Shown here: piece by piece, positions 29,001 to 62,303 of the stretch
Numbering within the stretch: position 1 is the stretch's first letter
How the letters are laid out: each line of letters begins with the position of its first letter
Assembly (NCBI RefSeq): GCF_002901705.1
Contig: NZ_PPPV01000012.1
Span: forward strand, 725,797-789,796
From: Staphylococcus lugdunensis
GTDB lineage: Bacteria > Bacillota > Bacilli > Staphylococcales > Staphylococcaceae
Direction: 5' to 3'
DNA length: 64,000 nt
Program-made: the position numbers and the translations under genes
The notes under the pieces: generated by a model
The model's database searches: none
What the model was told of the DNA's origin: nothing
What the model saw: the letters and a program-made list of their open reading frames with translations, nothing else

Positions 29001-29660
29001 TTAGCGAACAATTTTCTTTTCAAAGCGATTTAAATCATTATCATGTCCAATCATGATTAAAATATCGCCAATTTCAATATTGATATTTGGGTCTGGTGAT
29101 ACAATAATTTCTTTACCCCGCTTTATTGCAATGATATTGATTCCATATTGAGCTCGAATATCTAAATTGACAATGGACTGTCCAGCCATCTTTTCACTCG
29201 CCTTAAGTTCAACTAGTGAATGTTCATCAGATAACTCTAAATAATCAAGCACACTGGCACTTGCTACATTATGTGCAATACGTCGTCCCATATCCCGTTC
29301 TGGATGTACTACCGTATCTGCCCCAATTTTATTTAATATTTTAGCATGATAATCATTTTGGGCTTTAGCCGTTACTTTCTTAACACCTAGTTCCTTTAAT
29401 ATCAACGTTGTTAAAGTACTAGATTGAATATTTTCCCCTATGGCTACGATGACATGATCAAAGTTTCGAATACCTAAACTTTTCATTACTGCTTCATCCG
29501 TAGTGTCAGCAATGACCGCATGTGTTGCAATATCACTATATTCATTAACTCTAGCTTCATCGTGGTCAATCGCCATAACATCCATATCAAGTGCGTTTAG
29601 TTCTCTAACAATACTTCCCCCAAAACGTCCTAATCCAATCACAACGTACTCTTTATCCAT
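29001..29660 (-). CDS. ktrC: KtrA/KtrC-type potassium channel regulatory subunit
   Basis: 219-residue cytoplasmic RCK protein that gates Ktr K+ uptake channels. The N-domain Rossmann fold begins EYVVIGLGRFGGSIVREL (nucleotide-binding GxGxxG) and AIDHDEARV; the C-terminal TrkA_C domain includes ADTVVHPERDMGRRIAHNV and ALKR/IGDILIMIG-like blocks. ATG 29660 was chosen because AGGAGT precedes it; the open frame to 29714 adds a non-family leader. The named staphylococcal counterpart lies in the same place, between cydB and rnjA. The membrane partner (KtrB/KtrD) is not in the window. Confidence 0.93.
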   Translation of the reverse strand: MDKEYVVIGLGRFGGSIVRELNALDMDVMAIDHDEARVNEYSDIATHAVIADTTDEAVMKSLGIRNFDHVIVAIGENIQSSTLTTLILKELGVKKVTAKAQNDYHAKILNKIGADTVVHPERDMGRRIAHNVASASVLDYLELSDEHSLVELKASEKMAGQSIVNLDIRAQYGINIIAIKRGKEIIVSPDPNINIEIGDILIMIGHDNDLNRFEKKIVR

Positions 29661-29728: not shown

Positions 29729-30745
29729 TTATTTCTGATTTTTGACAATCCCTTTATTGTCTGTTGCTAATCTCAATAATAATATTAACGATGGAATAAG
29801 TAAAAGTAAACCTAAAATAATAACAATCATAAGTGTTAATCCTGTAGCAACACTAACTGTAGTATCTGTTATTTTAACAAATGGATATACAATATAAGGT
29901 AACTTACTCAACCCGTAACCGAAAAAAGCAAAAAACAGTTGTAATATCATCATAAGCATTGCGATTCCATGGTATTTTTTTAACAAAGCTAGAGACATCG
30001 CAATGATAAAACATAGTAAACTTAAAGTAAACATCCACCAATAATTATATATCGCATTGGTAAAATGATTCGCATTTTGAATTCGTAATGATAGAAAAAC
30101 AAATAATGAGACCATAATCATTGGCATACTCCAAAGCAACAGCCACTTTCTTACAGTTAAATATACGTGTGTATCTTTTAATTTTGCTGCAGAATATGTT
30201 AAAAAACCTGCTGAAATATACAACACTGTTATCACGGCTAAAAAGACTACTGACCAAGCAAACGGACTAATGACCAGTTGTACCCAATTCAAATCAAGGT
30301 GTGCGCCATCTTCTACAATATAACCGCCTTCTGATATAGTGAGAACAGATGCTAATGCAGCCGGAATTCCTAATCCAGACAAACAATATATCAACAGCCA
30401 TGGTAGACTTATGTCAGCTCTTTTATTGATAAAAATATAACTGCAACCTCTGATGATTATACAGATAAGTGCTATTGAACCAGGAATTAAAATCATTGTA
30501 TTCAAATAGTGAATTGCTGATGGAAATAAAGCAATCATACCTACATAACAAAACACGCAACATATATTAATTAAGCCCCAAATGGGATTTATCATATATT
30601 TATAAAGTACTTTTGACTTCTTCTCTTCACCAGACATGTGCATATAAAAAGCAAAGCAGCCTGTTCCAAAATAAATACCCGCAGCAATGACATAAAAAAA
30701 TAAACAAATCCAAAGCACCAGCATACTTATCCCAGTGTATGCCAT
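29729..30745 (-). CDS. cydB: Cytochrome bd-type quinol oxidase subunit II (CydB)
   Basis: 338-residue membrane protein with about eight or nine helices, full length for staphylococcal CydB. Subunit II of the bd oxidase, which needs heme-carrying CydA to act. The frame is intact from ATG 30745, whose start overlaps the upstream stop (TAATG), so translation is coupled to the cydA remnant. No frameshift or premature stop is visible. Given the loss of cydA, the protein probably has no oxidase activity unless a cydA lies elsewhere. Confidence 0.92.
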   Translation of the reverse strand: MAYTGISMLVLWICLFFYVIAAGIYFGTGCFAFYMHMSGEEKKSKVLYKYMINPIWGLINICCVFCYVGMIALFPSAIHYLNTMILIPGSIALICIIIRGCSYIFINKRADISLPWLLIYCLSGLGIPAALASVLTISEGGYIVEDGAHLDLNWVQLVISPFAWSVVFLAVITVLYISAGFLTYSAAKLKDTHVYLTVRKWLLLWSMPMIMVSLFVFLSLRIQNANHFTNAIYNYWWMFTLSLLCFIIAMSLALLKKYHGIAMLMMILQLFFAFFGYGLSKLPYIVYPFVKITDTTVSVATGLTLMIVIILGLLLLIPSLILLLRLATDNKGIVKNQK

Positions 30746-30882
30746 TACTGCTCACCTCTTTCCATTAGAACAGAATTAAATACATCATATGTAAAACTAC
30801 AAGGACACTTACATGCCACTATAGTGTTTAATTCATTGTTATATGGTGCTAATAATACATATCTCTTTTTAACTAAATTCAT
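30745..30882 (-). pseudogene. Vestigial cydA (about 45 codons left) coupled to cydB
   Basis: In staphylococci a roughly 450-codon cydA (subunit I with all three hemes) precedes cydB. Here only 138 bases remain between a good ribosome site (AGGGTG, nine bases before ATG 30882) and the cydB start. The peptide starts MNLVKKRYVLLAPYNNEL, whose VLLAPY..NEL..IVA resembles the late CydA helix VLLPYxANxxGWIxxEVGRQP, and ends TYDVFNSVLMERGEQ, probably the CydA tail. Heme-ligand histidines and the GRQPW motif are absent. This looks like large internal deletions that kept start, stop and coupling. It could instead be a new small protein (note CKCPC). Confidence 0.6.
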
Positions 30883-31055
30883 GCTTAATATCACCCTCAC
30901 GTTGATTTCATAGTATAAACAATTAGATATATAGTATATAAATATATGCACTATAAAAAAATCATTTTGTCCTATTTTCACATATTGTTCATAAGTTGAT
31001 TTTTGAGCGTTATTTTTATATAGTAAATCCAGTATAAAAATGAAAGGATAACTTT

Positions 31056-31289
31056 ATGGCACACATTACACTTTATACACAAGACGATTGTCCACCTTGT
31101 TCCTTTATTAAGAATTATTTACATGAACATCAAATTCCTTTTGAAGAAAAACATATAAAACATCAAGCTTATCGTGTGGAAATGTTAGATTATGATGCGT
31201 TTGCAACACCGTTTATATTGCTTAATGACGAACCAATGTATACTGTAGATATTGATAAAATTAATCACGCATTCAACATAACAGTATAA
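31056..31289 (+). CDS. Glutaredoxin/NrdH-like small redoxin
   Basis: 77 residues, thioredoxin fold. The active site CPPC is at about 13-16 (QDDCPPCSFIKNYL) and the cis-proline region is FATPFILL (about 50-57). Such proteins reduce ribonucleotide reductase or other disulfides; the partner is not evident here. ATG 31056 follows GAAAGGATAA. It diverges from the cyd genes, as in S. aureus. Cytoplasmic. Confidence 0.88.
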   Translation: MAHITLYTQDDCPPCSFIKNYLHEHQIPFEEKHIKHQAYRVEMLDYDAFATPFILLNDEPMYTVDIDKINHAFNITV

Positions 31290-31384: not shown

Positions 31385-33100
31385 TTATCGAGCTATATTG
31401 TGAACTAATTCTTTTACTTGTTCTTGTGTTGAACAATTAATCGCTCTATTAGCTAATTCCGTCATTTCATTTTTACTTAATCCATTAATTTGACGTCTTG
31501 CTTTTAAGATAGATGTTGCACTCATAGAGAATTCATCTAAACCTAAACCAAGTAATAATGGAATTGCTGTTTCATCGCCAGCCATCTCGCCACACATACC
31601 AGTCCATTTACCTTCTTTATGAGAAGCTTCAATCACTTGTTTCACTAGACGTAAAATAGCTGGATTATATGGTTGATAAAGGTATGATACACGTTCTGAC
31701 ATGCGGTCAGCAGCCATTGTGTATTGAATCAAATCATTAGTACCGATACTGAAGAAATCAACTTCTTTAGCAAAGATATCAGCTAATGCAGCTGTTGATG
31801 GGATTTCTACCATTATTCCGAGCTCGATATCATCTGACACGTCATGTCCTTCATTTTTTAGATTTTCTTTTTCTTCTAAAAGAAGCGCTTTGGCATCTCT
31901 AAACTCATTAATAGTAGCAACCATTGGGAACATAATATTTAATTTTCCATATGCTGAAGCACGCAAAAGAGCGCGCAACTGTGGTCTGAAAATATCAGGT
32001 TGATCTAAGCACAATCGAATCGCACGGTAACCTAAGAATGGGTTCATTTCTTTAGGCAAATTAAGATAAGGTAGTTCTTTATCTCCACCAATATCTAATG
32101 TACGGACTACGACGCGTTTATCTTTCATCGTTTCAAGCACTTTTTTATATGCTTCAAATTGCTCATCTTCAGTTGGCATTTGATCTCTGCCCATATATAA
32201 AAATTCTGTTCTATATAAGCCAATGCCTTCAGCACCGTTTTCAATAACGCCATACAAGTCATCTGGCGTACCGATATTCGCTGCAAGTTCAGCATGAATA
32301 CCATCTAAAGAAACCGTTTCAGCATCACGTAGTTTTTGAAGTTCTTTTTTATCTTCAAAGAAACGTTCACGTTTATGTTGATATGCGATCAGTTCATCTT
32401 CAGTTGGATCAATAATAACATCACCAGTTATACCATCAACAATAATCATATCTCCTTGTTTAACTTGGTGTGTGATTGATTTTGTACCAACGACAGCAGG
32501 GATTTCAAGTGAACGACTCATAATTGCTGAATGACTTGTTCTACCGCCAATGTTTGTCACAAATCCTTGAACAAAGTCTTTATTTAATTGTGCAGTATCT
32601 GAAGGTGTTAAGTCATTCCCCACAATAACGACACTTTCATCAATAATACTTGGGTTAGGTAATTCCACGCCTAGAATATGTGCAAGTAAACGTTTAGATA
32701 CGTCTCTAATATCTGCAGCACGCTCTTTCATATATTCATTATCCATTGATTCAAAAATCGTAATGAATTGTGATGTCACTTCATTTAATGCTTGAGGTGC
32801 ATTCACTTTCTCATTAGAGATTTTATCTTCAATTGGTTGAATTAATTCAGGATCATCTAGGACTAATAAATGCGCATCAAAAATAGCTGCTTTGTCAGCA
32901 CCTAATTGTTTTTCTGCATTATTTCTAATTTTAGTCAATTCAATTTTAGATGCTTCTACAGCATTTTTAAATTTATTGATTTCAGCATCTATATCAGTGA
33001 TTTTTTCATTGGTGAATGATAAATCTGGTTCAACAAGTAAATATGCTTTTGCAATAGCAACCCCATCTGAAGCTGCAATGCCGTTGATTAAGTTAGACAT
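31385..33100 (-). CDS. ptsI: Phosphoenolpyruvate-protein phosphotransferase (enzyme I)
   Basis: 571-residue cytoplasmic enzyme that autophosphorylates from PEP and passes phosphate to HPr. The active-site His is H190 in [13 protein letters not shown]. The PEP-binding C-terminal barrel has [27 protein letters not shown] and [18 protein letters not shown], and [20 protein letters not shown] with the proton-donor Cys. It lies two bases after ptsH. Standard length. Confidence 0.97.
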
Positions 33101-55713: not shown

Positions 55714-56826
55714 GTGTCAAAATTTAAGTCTTTGCTTCTAATGTTTGGGACACTGGTATTGCTTAGTGGTTGTTCCAATTTAGAAGTTTTTAATGCAAAA
55801 GGGCCAGTAGCAAGTAGTCAGAAGTTCTTGATTATCTACTCAATCGTCTTCATGCTTGTTATTGTTGCTGTTGTACTTACGATGTTCGCCGTTTTTATCT
55901 TTAAGTACAGTTATAATAAAAATGACGAATCTGGTAAGATGCACCACAATGGTTTAATTGAAACTATTTGGTTTGTGGTACCAATCTTAATCGTAACTGC
56001 TTTAGCTATTCCAACAGTTAAAACTTTATACGATTACGAAAAACCACCTCAAAAGGACAAAGATCCTATTACAATCTACGCAGTAAGTGCTGGATATAAA
56101 TGGTTCTTTGCTTATCCAGATCAGAAGGTCGAAACGGTGAATACATTAACTATTCCTAAAGACCGTCCGGTAACATTCAAGCTTCAAGCGATGGATACCA
56201 TGACAAGTTTCTGGATTCCACAATTGGGTGGTCAAAAATATGCCATGACTGGCATGACTATGGATTGGACTTTAACAGCCGATCAATTAGGTACTTTCAG
56301 AGGACGTAACTCTAACTTCAATGGTGAAGGTTTCTCACGTCAAACATTTAAAGTTCACTCTGTAAGTGAAAAAGATTTTGATTCATGGGTTAAAGAAGCA
56401 CACAGTAAGAAAACGTTAGATCAAGATACCTTTGATAAACAACTCTTACCAAGTACTTCTAATAAAGAACTCACATTCAATGGTACACATATGGCATTTG
56501 TTGACCCTGCAGCTGATCCAGAATACATCTTCTATGCTTATAAACGTTTTAATTTCGAGCTAAAAGATCCTAACTTCACAGATGAAAAAGATCTTTACAA
56601 AGATGTAACTGATAAACCAATCAAGCCTGCACGTAAAGTTAAAGTTACAAATGCTAACTATGCACGTCATGGAATGAAACCTATGATTCTTGGCAACGAT
56701 GATCCTTATGAAGGTAAATTTAAGGATGAAGAAAAACACAATCATAAGGAAATGGAAAAAATCTCAAAATCTGCTAAAGACGAAAATGCGTCTAAGCACG
56801 ATGATGATCATGGAGGTGGACATTAA
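55714..56826 (+). CDS. qoxA: Quinol oxidase subunit II (QoxA)
   Basis: 370 residues. Lipoprotein signal with lipobox LLSGC (Cys about 20), two membrane helices (about 38-60 and 82-105) and a periplasmic-side cupredoxin domain lacking the CuA ligands, as expected for a quinol rather than cytochrome c oxidase ([20 protein letters not shown]). The start is GTG 55714. The C-terminus is His/Asp-rich (DDDHGGGH) and overlaps qoxB by one base (TAATG). Confidence 0.95.
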
Positions 56827-58814
56827 TGAATTTTCCATGGGATCAATTACTAGTTAAAGGTAACTGGATGATTACAGCTGCACAAATTGGTGCACCATTC
56901 TTAGTCATCGCTGTTATTGCGGTAATTACTTATTTCAAATTATGGAAATATCTATACACTGAATGGTTCACATCCGTAGACCATAAAAAAATCGGCTTAA
57001 TGTATTTAATCTGTGCAGTATTAATGTTCGTTCGTGGTGGTATTGATGCACTGTTAATTCGTACGCAATTAACTGTACCAGACAACAAGTTCTTAGAATC
57101 AAACCACTATAATGAAATTTTTAGTACACACGGTGTTATCATGATTATCTTTATGGCTATGCCATTTGTGTTCGGTTTATGGAATGTTGTTATTCCATTA
57201 CAAATTGGTGCGCGTGATGTAGCCTTCCCAGTTATGAATAACATTAGTTTCTGGTTATTCTTTGCTGGTATGATTTTATTCAACTTATCATTTATTATTG
57301 GTGGTTCACCAGCTGCTGGTTGGACAAACTATGCACCACTAGCTGGCGAATTCAGTCCTGGTCCAGGTGTAAACTACTATTTGATTGCAATTCAGCTATC
57401 GGGTATTGGTACACTGATGACCGGTATCAACTTCTTCGTTACAATTCTTAGAGCGAAGACGCCAACAATGAAATTTATGCAAATGCCAATGTTCTCAGTG
57501 ACAGCATTTGTTACAACATTAATTATCATTTTGGCATTCCCAGTATTCACTGTTGTATTAGCGTTAATGACAGCTGATAGAATCTTTGGAACACACTTCT
57601 TTACCGTTGCAGACGGCGGTATGCCTATGTTATGGGCAAACTTCTTCTGGGTATGGGGGCACCCTGAAGTATATATCGTTATTTTACCTGCATTTGGTAT
57701 TTACTCTGAAATTATCCCAACATTTGCTCGTAAACGTTTATTCGGACATCAAAGTATGGTTTGGGCAACTGCTGGTATCGCATTCTTGAGTTTCTTAGTT
57801 TGGGTTCACCATTTCTTCACAATGGGTAATGGTGCATTAATCAACTCATTCTTCTCAATCTCAACAATGCTAATTGGTGTACCAACCGGTGTAAAACTAT
57901 TTAACTGGTTATTAACACTATACAAAGGTCGAATTACTTTCGAGTCACCGATGTTATTCTCATTAGCATTTATTCCTAACTTCCTATTAGGTGGGGTTAC
58001 TGGTGTAATGTTAGCGATGGCATCAGCTGACTATCAATATCACAACACTTATTTCTTAGTAGCTCACTTCCACTATACATTGGTTACTGGTGTAGTATTT
58101 GCCTGCTTAGCTGGTTTAATATTCTGGTATCCTAAGATGATGGGTTACAAATTAAATGAAACATTAAACAAATGGTGTTTCTGGTTGTTCATGATTGGAT
58201 TTAACGTTTGTTTCTTACCACAATTCATTCTTGGACTAGATGGTATGCCACGTCGTTTATACACGTATATGCCTTCAGATGGCTGGTTTTTACTAAACTT
58301 CATCTCAACAATCGGTGCCCTATTAATGACAGTAGGTTTCTTATTCCTTGTTGTTAGCATCGTTTATAGCCATATTAAAGCACCTCGTGAAGCAACTGGT
58401 GATAACTGGGATGGTCTTGGTCGTACATTAGAGTGGTCTACTGCTTCAGCTATTCCACCTAAATACAACTTTGCAATCACTCCAGACTGGAATGACTATG
58501 ATACATTTGTTGATATGAAAGAACATGGTCGTCACTACTTAGACAACCATAATTACAAAGACATTCACATGCCTAACAATACACACACTGGTTTCTGGAT
58601 GTGTATTTTCATGACTATCGGTGGTTTCTTCTTAATCTTCGAAACAATCATCCCTGCCCTAATCTGTTTAGTAGGTGTATTTGGTACGATGATTTATCAA
58701 AGTTTCGTTCAAGATCACGGATATCATATTCCAGCTTCTGAAGTTGCTGAAAATGAAGCTCGCTTAAGAGAAGCACGAATTAAAGAAAGGGAGGCTGTAA
58801 GTCATGAGTCATGA
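56826..58814 (+). CDS. qoxB: Quinol oxidase subunit I (QoxB), heme-copper oxidase
   Basis: 662 residues with fifteen or so helices; catalytic subunit that reduces O2 to water while pumping protons. Heme/copper ligands are in [16 protein letters not shown], the active-site [18 protein letters not shown], the HH pair in [10 protein letters not shown] and HFHYTLVTG near the C-terminal third. It lies between qoxA and qoxC with short overlaps, all typical. Confidence 0.97.
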
Positions 58815-59409
58815 TGTAAAAACTATTGATGCACGTACGCATGAAGGTGAACTAAATAAACTTGGCTTTTGGATTTTCCTTACAGCCGAATTTGCCTTAT
58901 TTGGTACACTATTTGCAACGTTATTAACGTTACAACATGGTGGCGATTATGCAGGTAAATTGACAACTGATTTATTCGAGTTAAAACTCGTATTGATTAT
59001 GACATTTGCCTTGTTATTAAGTTCTTACACATGTGGTATTGCAATTTACTATATGCGTAAAGAAAAGCAAAACTTAATGATGTTATGGATGATTATTACA
59101 CTTGCATTAGGCCTTGTATTCGTTGGATTTGAAATATACGAATTCGCGCACTATGCTAGCGAAGGTGTAAATCCAACAATCGGTTCGTTCTGGTCAAGTT
59201 TCTTCATCCTCTTAGGTACTCATGGTGCCCACGTTTCGTTAGGTATTGTTTGGATCATTTGCTTATTAATCCAAGTAGCAACTCGTGGATTGAATAAATA
59301 CAATGCTCCTAAGTTATTCATTGTAAGTTTATACTGGCACTTCTTAGATGTTGTTTGGATCTTCATCTTCACTGCCGTATATATGATAGGGATGGTGTAT
59401 AGCGGATGA
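58804..59409 (+). CDS. qoxC: Quinol oxidase subunit III (QoxC)
   Basis: 201 residues, five helices, COX3 family ([51 protein letters not shown]). It starts at ATG 58804 after AAGGGAGG inside the qoxB end (11-base overlap), and overlaps qoxD by four bases (ATGA). Confidence 0.96.
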
Positions 59410-59696
59410 ATACAATCGTAAAACATACAATCGGATTTATTGCTTCTATCGTATTAACGCTTTTAGCAGTGTTTGTAACTCTATACACAACATTGACTTT
59501 CCATGCTAAAGTTACAATCATCTTTGGATTTGCATTTATCCAAGCTGCCCTTCAATTATTAATGTTTATGCATTTAACTGAAGGTAAAGATGGACAAGTT
59601 CAATCATTCAAAGTTATTTTTGCCATTATCATCACCCTTGTTACTGTTATCGGTACGTACTGGGTAATGCAAGGTGGACACTCACACCACTTATAA
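59406..59696 (+). CDS. qoxD: Quinol oxidase subunit IV (QoxD)
   Basis: 96 residues, three helices, typical of the small CyoD/QoxD family ([20 protein letters not shown] around 54). It stabilises the aa3/bo3-type oxidase complex. Last gene of qoxABCD, followed by a strong terminator. Confidence 0.95.
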
Positions 59697-61088: not shown

Positions 61089-62303
61089 TTAATAGAACTT
61101 TTTACCATATACATTAATATCATAGTTTTGTTTTAAGATATTTTGGAATATATGCGTAATTTTATATTCGTTATTAGTAGTATTGGAGAGTATCTTGTTT
61201 GTCCCTAAAACCACTGTATATTTGCCATTAGAAAAACCAGTAAAATTTTGACCATTAAACATACCACTGACTCTATTATATTTAGGGAACGTATAAAAGC
61301 CATAGCGATAATTAGTTGGATAGCGTTTGGTACCAAATTCATGAATGAACGGATTAGTTACTGATTGATCAAAAATTTTATTATTAATTAATTTTTCTAG
61401 TAAAACACCCATATCTTTAGTCGTCATGAATAAATTACCGGCACCATAATATTCTTGTAGTGTATTCGGCTTGGCACTTATTAAATTATTATTTTTGTAA
61501 TAGTAGCCTATCGCCATATGTTGTTGAAATGGCTTTTCATTGAAAAATGCTGAGTTATTAAGTTTTAATGGTTTACCTAAGCGTTCATAATAATTTTGCG
61601 CGTATGGTTTGTGTGTTACCTCTTCTATAACTTTAGCTAACACAAGATAATTGCCGTCATTATATAAATGTTTATGATAGCCATTAGGGTCCATACCTTT
61701 TTCTTGTATAGCATGCACAGCATCATCCAAAGTTTCATAAGACGGAGATGCTTGGAATTTATATAATCCACTTTTATGTAGTTCTAAATCTTTTAACGTT
61801 ATCTTTTTTGATGTTTTAAACCAAGGTAAATATTTAGACACTGGTGCATTAATATTAATTTTATGCTCAAGTTCAAGTTGTTTAAGCATTAAACCAGTGG
61901 TGAATTTTTGAGCCGAACCTATCAAATACATTGTATTAGGTGAACTTTTGATCTTATGTTCAAAATCTTGATAACCATAGCCTTTGTTCATAACTAATTT
62001 ACCATCTTTAAAAACCGCAATTGTTCCATTAAATTTTTGCTTTTTAAGATATTTATTTATTTCTTGATATTGCTTGCCTTTAGCTTCTATTGTCTTTAAA
62101 TTGGCAACATCTTTTACACTTTTATTTCTTTTTGCTATGTAATCCTCATTCGAGTCGGCACTATCTTCTTTATTCGTTGATATCTTTATTTGAGATTTAT
62201 TGCCCGTGTCATCATTCCACATTTGATGAAATGAAAATACTAAAATTCCTAGCAATACAAATGGTATAACAATAATGCCTATTAACTTTTTATTTATATT
62301 CAT
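61089..62303 (-). CDS. fmtA: FmtA-like serine esterase / penicillin-recognising protein
   Basis: 404 residues. A single N-terminal membrane anchor (about 8-27) and a linker are followed by a beta-lactamase/DD-peptidase-like domain with SAQK at 130-133 (SXXK nucleophile), YND in LYNDGNYLVLAK (SXN-like Tyr) and FNGQNFTGFSNG near the end. S. aureus FmtA is a D-Ala esterase acting on teichoic acids and affects methicillin resistance. The motifs are kept; identity to S. aureus FmtA looks only moderate from memory. It starts at ATG 62303 and diverges from lcpB. Confidence 0.88.
   Translation of the reverse strand: MNINKKLIGIIVIPFVLLGILVFSFHQMWNDDTGNKSQIKISTNKEDSADSNEDYIAKRNKSVKDVANLKTIEAKGKQYQEINKYLKKQKFNGTIAVFKDGKLVMNKGYGYQDFEHKIKSSPNTMYLIGSAQKFTTGLMLKQLELEHKININAPVSKYLPWFKTSKKITLKDLELHKSGLYKFQASPSYETLDDAVHAIQEKGMDPNGYHKHLYNDGNYLVLAKVIEEVTHKPYAQNYYERLGKPLKLNNSAFFNEKPFQQHMAIGYYYKNNNLISAKPNTLQEYYGAGNLFMTTKDMGVLLEKLINNKIFDQSVTNPFIHEFGTKRYPTNYRYGFYTFPKYNRVSGMFNGQNFTGFSNGKYTVVLGTNKILSNTTNNEYKITHIFQNILKQNYDINVYGKKFY

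What the first reader, a model, noticed from the sequence alone, without database searches (positions are those of the whole stretch)
30745..31055. cydA almost entirely lost in front of an intact cydB
Staphylococcal cydAB encodes both subunits of cytochrome bd oxidase, and cydA should fill about 1.36 kb upstream of cydB. Here only 138 bases of ORF lie between a good AGGGTG ribosome site and the TAATG junction with cydB, and the divergent redoxin gene follows 173 bases further on. The 45-residue product has a CydA-like start, a piece resembling the late CydA helix, and a tail joined to cydB, but no heme ligands. cydB has no visible decay, which suggests either a recent loss or a CydB still made for another purpose. 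Quinol oxidase Qox (55.7-59.7 kb) would then be the only terminal oxidase in the window.
Basis: partly seen in the sequence, partly recalled or inferred. Interest (0 to 1): 0.78.

Follow-up and report, generated by a model that had tools for sequence, protein, structure and literature searches.

The report
Oxidase subunit B outliving subunit A
A Staphylococcus has lost almost the whole gene for the heme-carrying half of an oxygen-using enzyme, yet still keeps an intact but strongly changed gene for the other half, which suggests that this partner protein has found a job of its own.

Summary
Upstream of an intact 338-codon cydB lies a 45-codon ORF that starts like cydA (ribosome site, first codons) and ends like cydA (last ~15 codons, TAATG overlap). 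The genome has no CydA match. Assembly collapse is unlikely: the remnant peptide is in 15 contigs and the CydB cluster has 55 members.

This CydB is 56-59% identical to those of ten sister species, which are 88-98% identical to each other, while flanking PtsI and KtrC keep 91-95%. It lost 30 of 121 residues invariant in 50 other staphylococcal CydBs (none of those lost more than 2), most in helix 2, which faces CydA, Asp25 and Glu57 included. Yet it has no stop or indel, and a neutral branch is rejected (p 3.5e-10).

In the order, 1 of 146 cydB-bearing genomes lacks cydA. In a class sample, 3 more (2 genera) do; all three also lack the Glu57 equivalent. Best reading: an old loss of cydA, with CydB kept for a CydA-independent role. 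That role is unknown, and the order of events is inferred, not dated.

The parts
29729..30745 (-). orphan cydB, 338 codons, intact, 9 predicted TM helices; Asp25 to Tyr and Glu57 to Gly among 30 lost invariant residues
30745..30882 (-). 45-codon remnant of cydA: original start region fused to the last ~15 codons; stop overlaps the cydB start (TAATG)
   Evidence: same peptide in 15 contigs
30890..30897 (-). AGGGTGAT, ribosome site of the remnant, aligned with AAGGTGAT or AAGGAGAT before cydA in sister species
30753..30759 (-). AGAGGTG, ribosome site of cydB, inside the retained 3' end of cydA as in sister species
30883..31055 (-). former cydA upstream region between the divergent redoxin gene and the remnant; alignable in part with sister species
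   Evidence: no promoter or terminator call above chance
30977..30994 (-). TTATGAACAATATGTGAA, matching the position and much of TGTGAAAATTATGTGAA upstream of cydA in sister species; a possible regulator site (inference)
29001..29660 (-). KtrC/TrkA-type gene downstream of cydB, the native neighbour; conserved control gene (the name KtrC is recalled)
31056..31289 (+). divergent glutaredoxin-like gene, native neighbour
31385..33100 (-). ptsI, conserved control gene (name recalled from the sequence)
55714..59696 (+). qoxABCD, the remaining menaquinol oxidase in the window
   Evidence: QoxD by position and size only

Best explanation
Shown: in this Staphylococcus lineage cydA is gone except for its start and its last codons, fused into a 45-codon ORF that keeps the ribosome sites of both genes and the TAATG junction with cydB. 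Inferred: an old internal deletion removed about 405 codons in frame, so cydB stayed expressible (translation coupled through the mini-ORF) while cytochrome bd was lost and respiration rests on Qox. Shown: cydB changed far faster than its neighbours, most of all in helix 2, which packs against CydA, and lost acids Asp25 and Glu57, but it stayed free of stops and indels, with net purifying selection over the branch. Inferred: most of this change followed the loss of CydA, and CydB has been kept for a CydA-independent role, as a stand-alone or homodimeric nine-helix membrane protein, possibly quinone- or lipid-binding, since E. coli CydB holds a structural quinone. That biochemical role is a guess (about 0.2).
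For: No CydA match in the genome. Genus: cydA in 74 of 84, cydB in 75 of 84; G000 is the only genome with cydB alone. Order: 145 and 146 of 157, again only G000. CydB 56-59% to ten sister species, 88-98% among them; PtsI 91-93%, KtrC 93-95% to the same. cydB branch 2.5 substitutions/site, every other branch under 0.3. Codon model, 15 species: omega 0.093 on this branch, 0.026 elsewhere; omega 1 rejected, 2 delta lnL 39.4, p 3.5e-10; in ptsI the same branch has a lower omega than the rest (0.008 against 0.021). Neutral simulation: at 63% identity 0 of 90 runs stop-free, at 80% 0 of 90, at 90% 3 of 90. Invariant residues lost 30 of 121, against at most 2 of 123 in leave-one-out of the 50 other CydBs aligned. 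Helices 2, 3, 9 lost 16 of 37 invariants, other helices 7 of 62, p 4.6e-4; 13 of 32 against 10 of 66, p 0.01, with helix bounds from the model. Helices 2, 3 and 9 are the CydA contact in solved structures (PMC6853902, PMC9846854, passages). Remnant ends drifted beyond relatives. Parallel cases G202, G283, G204.
Against: Synonymous sites are saturated on this branch, and two omegas beat one only at 2 delta lnL 3.5 (p about 0.06), because one omega can stretch the branch to 32 neutral units, against 5.4 for ptsI and 7.7 for ktrC. In a constrained-then-neutral model the likelihood is nearly flat for neutral phases up to 0.2 units (loss 0.5), so a brief recent release is opposed only by the lack of stops (0.1 units: 1.8 expected), not by the substitutions. 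Omega averages time before and after the loss; that the divergence followed the loss is inferred from where it lies. No DNA polymorphism, expression or protein data. The CydB tree attaches G000 one node away from its place in the species tree, as a long branch can. Nine cysteines against 0-3 elsewhere could be drift. The predicted model is only moderately confident (mean pLDDT 66.9).
Confidence: 0.65

Rival explanations
1. cydB is a pseudogene in waiting: cydA was lost recently, CydB has no function now, and its frame has not yet been broken.
For: Elevated nonsynonymous rate and loss of 30 of 121 invariant residues. Dead operons exist in the genus: G055 has stops in both genes, G057 a broken cydB. 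The substitutions alone do not exclude a short final neutral phase.
Against: A wholly neutral branch is rejected at p 3.5e-10. A neutral phase of 0.2 units predicts 3.7 stops, and a branch of the neighbours' length needs 0.8 neutral units, 6.8 lnL worse and 14.7 expected stops. 0 of 90 simulated neutral runs at this divergence were stop-free. Losses are clustered. The remnant ends have drifted.
Confidence: 0.17
2. The divergent cydB was imported from an unsampled lineage, with or without its own cydA, and replaced the native gene; its divergence then predates the cydA loss.
For: Similar identity, 53-59%, to the 29 best-matching other genomes; very long branch.
Against: Native flanks on both sides and cydA-like start and end at the joint. 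Identity falls with distance (up to 59% in the sister clade, 45% in far staphylococci), and the tree, built from staphylococcal sequences only, gives no outside donor. In the protein collection the next listed protein after the 99% cluster and its frameshifted copy is 58% identical (8000 candidates scored, 120 of 921 hits listed).
Confidence: 0.08
3. The 45-residue peptide itself is a working small subunit that pairs with CydB in place of CydA.
For: Intact ORF with a good ribosome site, identical peptide in 15 contigs.
Against: No Pfam match, no clear transmembrane helix (maximum 19-residue hydropathy 1.04). Its plainest role is to carry the cydB ribosome site.
Confidence: 0.05
4. Assembly collapse or contamination hides a full cydA.
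For: Draft genome of 19 contigs.
Against: Genome rated 100% complete; no CydA match anywhere; remnant peptide in 15 contigs and 55 CydB cluster members, among them a variant differing at a few residues.
Confidence: 0.02

Closest known systems
CydB, subunit II of cytochrome bd (PF02322; Geobacillus 5doq_B)
   Same: Homologous over the full length (phmmer E 6.8e-70 to 5doq_B), nine predicted helices, same gene place as in the genus.
   Different: No CydA partner in the genome; Asp25, Glu57 and 28 other residues invariant in 50 staphylococcal CydBs are changed.
Canonical staphylococcal cydAB operon
   Same: Same neighbours, ribosome sites in the same places, TAATG junction as in the ten nearest species.
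   Different: About 405 of 450 cydA codons missing; no cytochrome bd can form.
CydB-like proteins without CydA in G202 and G283 (L110, L109) and G204 (L111), found here
   Same: PF02322 protein in a genome with no PF01654 match; Glu57 equivalent lost.
   Different: Different gene place (beside transketolase in L109 and L110); L111 lacks the helix 2-3 stretch; only 21-36% identical to the window CydB.
Dead cyd operon of G055
   Same: Cytochrome bd lost in a staphylococcus.
   Different: There cydB carries several stops; here it carries none.

Membership tests
CydB family (PF02322) | Profile match over the cut-off across the whole protein | tested here: met
   101.2 bits, cut-off 35.6, residues 6-325
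CydB family (PF02322) | Nine transmembrane helices | tested here: met
   Predicted model with nine long helices, mean pLDDT 66.9; hydropathy segments agree when overlapping ones are merged by hand; not experimentally shown
CydB family (PF02322) | Conserved acids Asp25 and Glu57 (their equation with the proton-pathway acids of E. coli is recalled) | tested here: not met
   Asp25 to Tyr, Glu57 to Gly; both invariant in the 50 other staphylococcal CydBs aligned
Cytochrome bd oxidase | CydA with heme ligands and quinol loop | tested here: not met
   No PF01654 match in the genome; 45-codon remnant only
Pseudogene | Broken frame, or neutral rate over the branch | tested here: not met
   338 intact codons, no indel; omega 1 over the whole branch rejected; a short final neutral phase is not excluded
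CydX/CydS-type small subunit (for the 45-residue peptide) | Single transmembrane helix | tested here: not met
   Maximum 19-residue hydropathy 1.04; no Pfam match
Stand-alone CydB with its own function | Expression and phenotype without CydA | not testable with these tools
   No expression or mutant data

The most novel reading that the evidence does not exclude
CydB can be freed from CydA and kept as a protein in its own right. This has happened at least three times in this class (this Staphylococcus; genus g52 with G202 and G283; G204), each time with loss of the helix-2 acid equivalent to Glu57, and in two of them with decay or deletion of the CydA-facing helices 2-3 while the rest of the protein was kept.
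Probability: 0.4. Interest if true: 0.8.

Novelty: new variant of a known kind. Interest (0 to 1): 0.6.

Why it matters
CydB is described as the cofactor-free half of cytochrome bd, and my paper searches showed no use for it apart from CydA. A CydB that outlives CydA under selection would show that this fold does something alone, and would offer a natural system in which that can be tested. It also marks a Staphylococcus species without cytochrome bd, which would be expected to respire through Qox and to be fully sensitive to low cyanide; in S. aureus without cydA, 100 uM cyanide stops all membrane oxygen use (PMC4958251, passages).

Tried and rejected
Recent-loss model: fitted as a constrained then neutral branch; the neutral part went to nearly zero, the likelihood was almost flat up to 0.2 units and fell beyond, and expected stops did most of the rejecting. 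Horizontal import: no donor seen. Assembly collapse: unlikely from other contigs. Gapped alignment of the remnant ends to cydA against shuffles was mostly uninformative (start no better than shuffles in 8 species; end good in G072, G020 and G050 only; G047 was skipped and the script then stopped on an error); the anchored tests replaced it. RNA folding of the remnant region gave no signal (z 0.31) and promoter scans none above chance. Naming the species: the genome-contig scan found no relative and the third protein search gave no name for the own protein. Six NEAT-domain matches with recalled knowledge of Isd loci suggest S. lugdunensis, unproven. YN00 dN/dS for L109 and L110 failed; only NG86 is given. 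Voggu 2006 is not held; seen only through a review passage.

Full report
What is there. On the minus strand cydB runs from 30745 to 29729 as one ORF of 338 codons, with a PF02322 match over residues 6-325 and a match to Geobacillus CydB 5doq_B at E 6.8e-70. Before it lies a 45-codon ORF (30882-30745) whose stop overlaps the cydB start. Sister species hold a cydA of about 450 codons in this place with the same kind of junction; in one of them, G047, cydA carries one in-frame TAA. The ribosome site AGGGTGAT and ATG of the remnant line up with AAGGTGAT and ATG of cydA in sister species. Against ten sister species the first 24 nt score above all but 6 of 2781 other ATGs in the window, and the last 45 nt plus TAATG above all but 1 of 353 other TAATG sites (mean identity); other lengths gave 51 to 125 of about 2781 and 3 to 8 of 353. 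So both ends of cydA survive and about 405 codons between them are gone. The middle of the peptide has no detectable source.

It is not an obvious artefact. The genome (2.52 Mb, 19 contigs, rated 100% complete) has no PF01654 match at E 0.001 and one PF02322 match. The remnant peptide occurs, as part of a 78-residue ORF, in 15 contigs, which may include the window's own, and a CydB cluster whose listed member is 99% identical has 55 member sequences. One listed protein, P0002, reads as a frameshifted copy of the same gene, probably from a poor contig.

How rare. In the genus 74 of 84 genomes have cydA and 75 of 84 have cydB; nine lack both and only this one has cydB alone. In the order it is 145 and 146 of 157, with the same single exception. 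In an even draw of 151 genomes of the class cydB is in 126 and cydA in 123; cydB without cydA occurs in G000, G202, G283 and G204, and cydA without cydB in G224, which is 79% complete.

CydB here is 56-59% identical to the ten nearest species, which are 88-98% identical to each other, while PtsI is 91-93% and KtrC 93-95% to the same species. The redoxin neighbour is a fast gene too (56-71%). In the nucleotide tree the cydB branch is 2.5 substitutions per site, against 0.2 for ptsI plus ktrC. The protein tree, made of staphylococcal sequences only, puts it one node from its place in the species tree. The remnant ends have drifted as well: 13-15 of 24 nt at the start against 20-24 among relatives, and 23-26 of 50 at the end against a mean of 39.7 among relatives, which speaks for an old loss.

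Selection. A branch codon model on 15 species gives omega 0.026 elsewhere and 0.093 on this branch; omega 1 is rejected (2 delta lnL 39.4, p 3.5e-10); at omega 0.2 the likelihood is 2.3 units below the best and it falls further above. Two omegas are only marginally better than one (2 delta lnL 3.5), because synonymous sites are saturated and one omega can be kept by stretching the branch to 32 neutral units, against 5.4 for ptsI and 7.7 for ktrC. In ptsI the same branch has a lower omega than the rest (0.008 against 0.021), so there is no general relaxation. A branch that was first constrained and then neutral is not preferred; its likelihood is nearly flat up to 0.2 neutral units (0.5 lost) and 6.8 lower at 0.8, where the constrained part has the length of the neighbours' branches; 0.2 units would bring 3.7 expected stops and 0.8 units 14.7. 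So a brief recent release cannot be excluded, a long one can. Simulated neutral change from three relatives left 3 of 90 runs without a stop at 90% identity, 0 of 90 at 80% and 0 of 90 at 63%. The gene has none, and no indel.

Where it changed. I aligned CydB of 50 other staphylococcal genomes, of the 74 that have a cydB match besides this one; the others had no fetched locus or, for G041, no ORF was picked up. Of 121 positions invariant in those 50, 30 are changed here; in leave-one-out none of the 50 lost more than 2. The remaining positions differ from the consensus more often than invariant ones (110 of 217 against 30 of 121, p 3.6e-6), so constraint still shows. Losses concentrate in helix 2 (11 of 19) and in helices 2, 3 and 9 together (16 of 37 against 7 of 62 elsewhere, p 4.6e-4, helix bounds by hydropathy; 13 of 32 against 10 of 66, p 0.01, with helix bounds from the predicted model). 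Published structures place the CydA-CydB contact on helices 2, 3 and 9 (PMC6853902 and PMC9846854, passages) and a proton path flanked by helices 2 and 3 of both subunits (PMC8951039, passages). Glu57 is changed to Gly; it aligns with the Asp of a WD pair in 8b4o_B, and I recall that this corresponds to E. coli Asp58, to which a water chain leads protons (PMC6853902, passage). Asp25 is changed to Tyr. The protein has 9 cysteines against 0-3 in the others, which drift could explain.

Parallel cases. G202 and G283, two species of one genus, hold a PF02322 protein of 350 and 358 residues beside what read as transketolase and transporter genes (neighbours named from their sequences, by recall), 59% identical to each other with dN 0.35 and dS 1.71 (NG86), against 93% for the transketolase part. 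G204 (one contig) holds a 277-residue CydB in which a stretch after Trp56, covering helices 2-3, is missing and Asp25 is His. In these three the Glu57 equivalent is Thr, Thr and absent; Asp25 is kept in G202 and G283. Only four genomes and three lineages stand behind this, and the G204 protein may be a decaying gene.

How it most likely works. An old internal deletion in cydA left the upstream region, both ribosome sites and the coupled junction, so that CydB could continue to be made without CydA (inferred). Cytochrome bd cannot form. QoxABCD in the window is complete (QoxD by position and size). Freed from CydA, CydB lost much of its contact face and its acids but kept its fold and the second helix bundle, so something still selects it, or did until very recently. 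A quinone- or lipid-binding membrane protein acting alone or as a homodimer is my guess for the role, with low confidence.

Literature. Ten paper searches showed no description of CydB without CydA in their listings. A review passage reports that CydA is the more conserved subunit in staphylococci while CydB differs between groups, in relation to Pseudomonas respiratory toxins (PMC5376567). In S. aureus without cydA, 100 uM cyanide stops all membrane oxygen use (PMC4958251, passages). The species of the window is probably S. lugdunensis, from six NEAT-domain matches and recall, not from a named record.

Noticed in passing
L109 1345-2418 and L110 1489-2538: Stand-alone CydB-like protein in two species of one genus of the class whose genomes have no CydA match; 59% identical to each other, beside a transketolase-like gene.
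   Followed up: partly
L111 1453-2283: 277-residue CydB without helices 2-3 in a one-contig genome that has no CydA match.
   Followed up: partly
G047 cydA: cydA of a sister species carries one in-frame TAA while cydB is intact: an early stage of the same loss, or a sequencing error.
   Followed up: no
G055, G057, G031: Broken or split cydB genes in three other staphylococcal genomes; G055 has stops in both cydA and cydB.
   Followed up: no
nine genus genomes G002, G007, G042, G043, G044, G054, G070, G073, G074: No match to cydA or cydB, so cytochrome bd seems to be missing from several staphylococci.
   Followed up: no
L043 (G032), after ptsI: What looks by eye like a transposase gene lies right after ptsI, where the sister species have the redoxin gene.
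   Followed up: no
61089-62303: FmtA-like serine hydrolase only 51-61% identical to the other relatives listed.
   Followed up: no
31056-31289: The divergent redoxin gene is itself fast-evolving (56-71% identity), unlike ptsI and ktrC.
   Followed up: no
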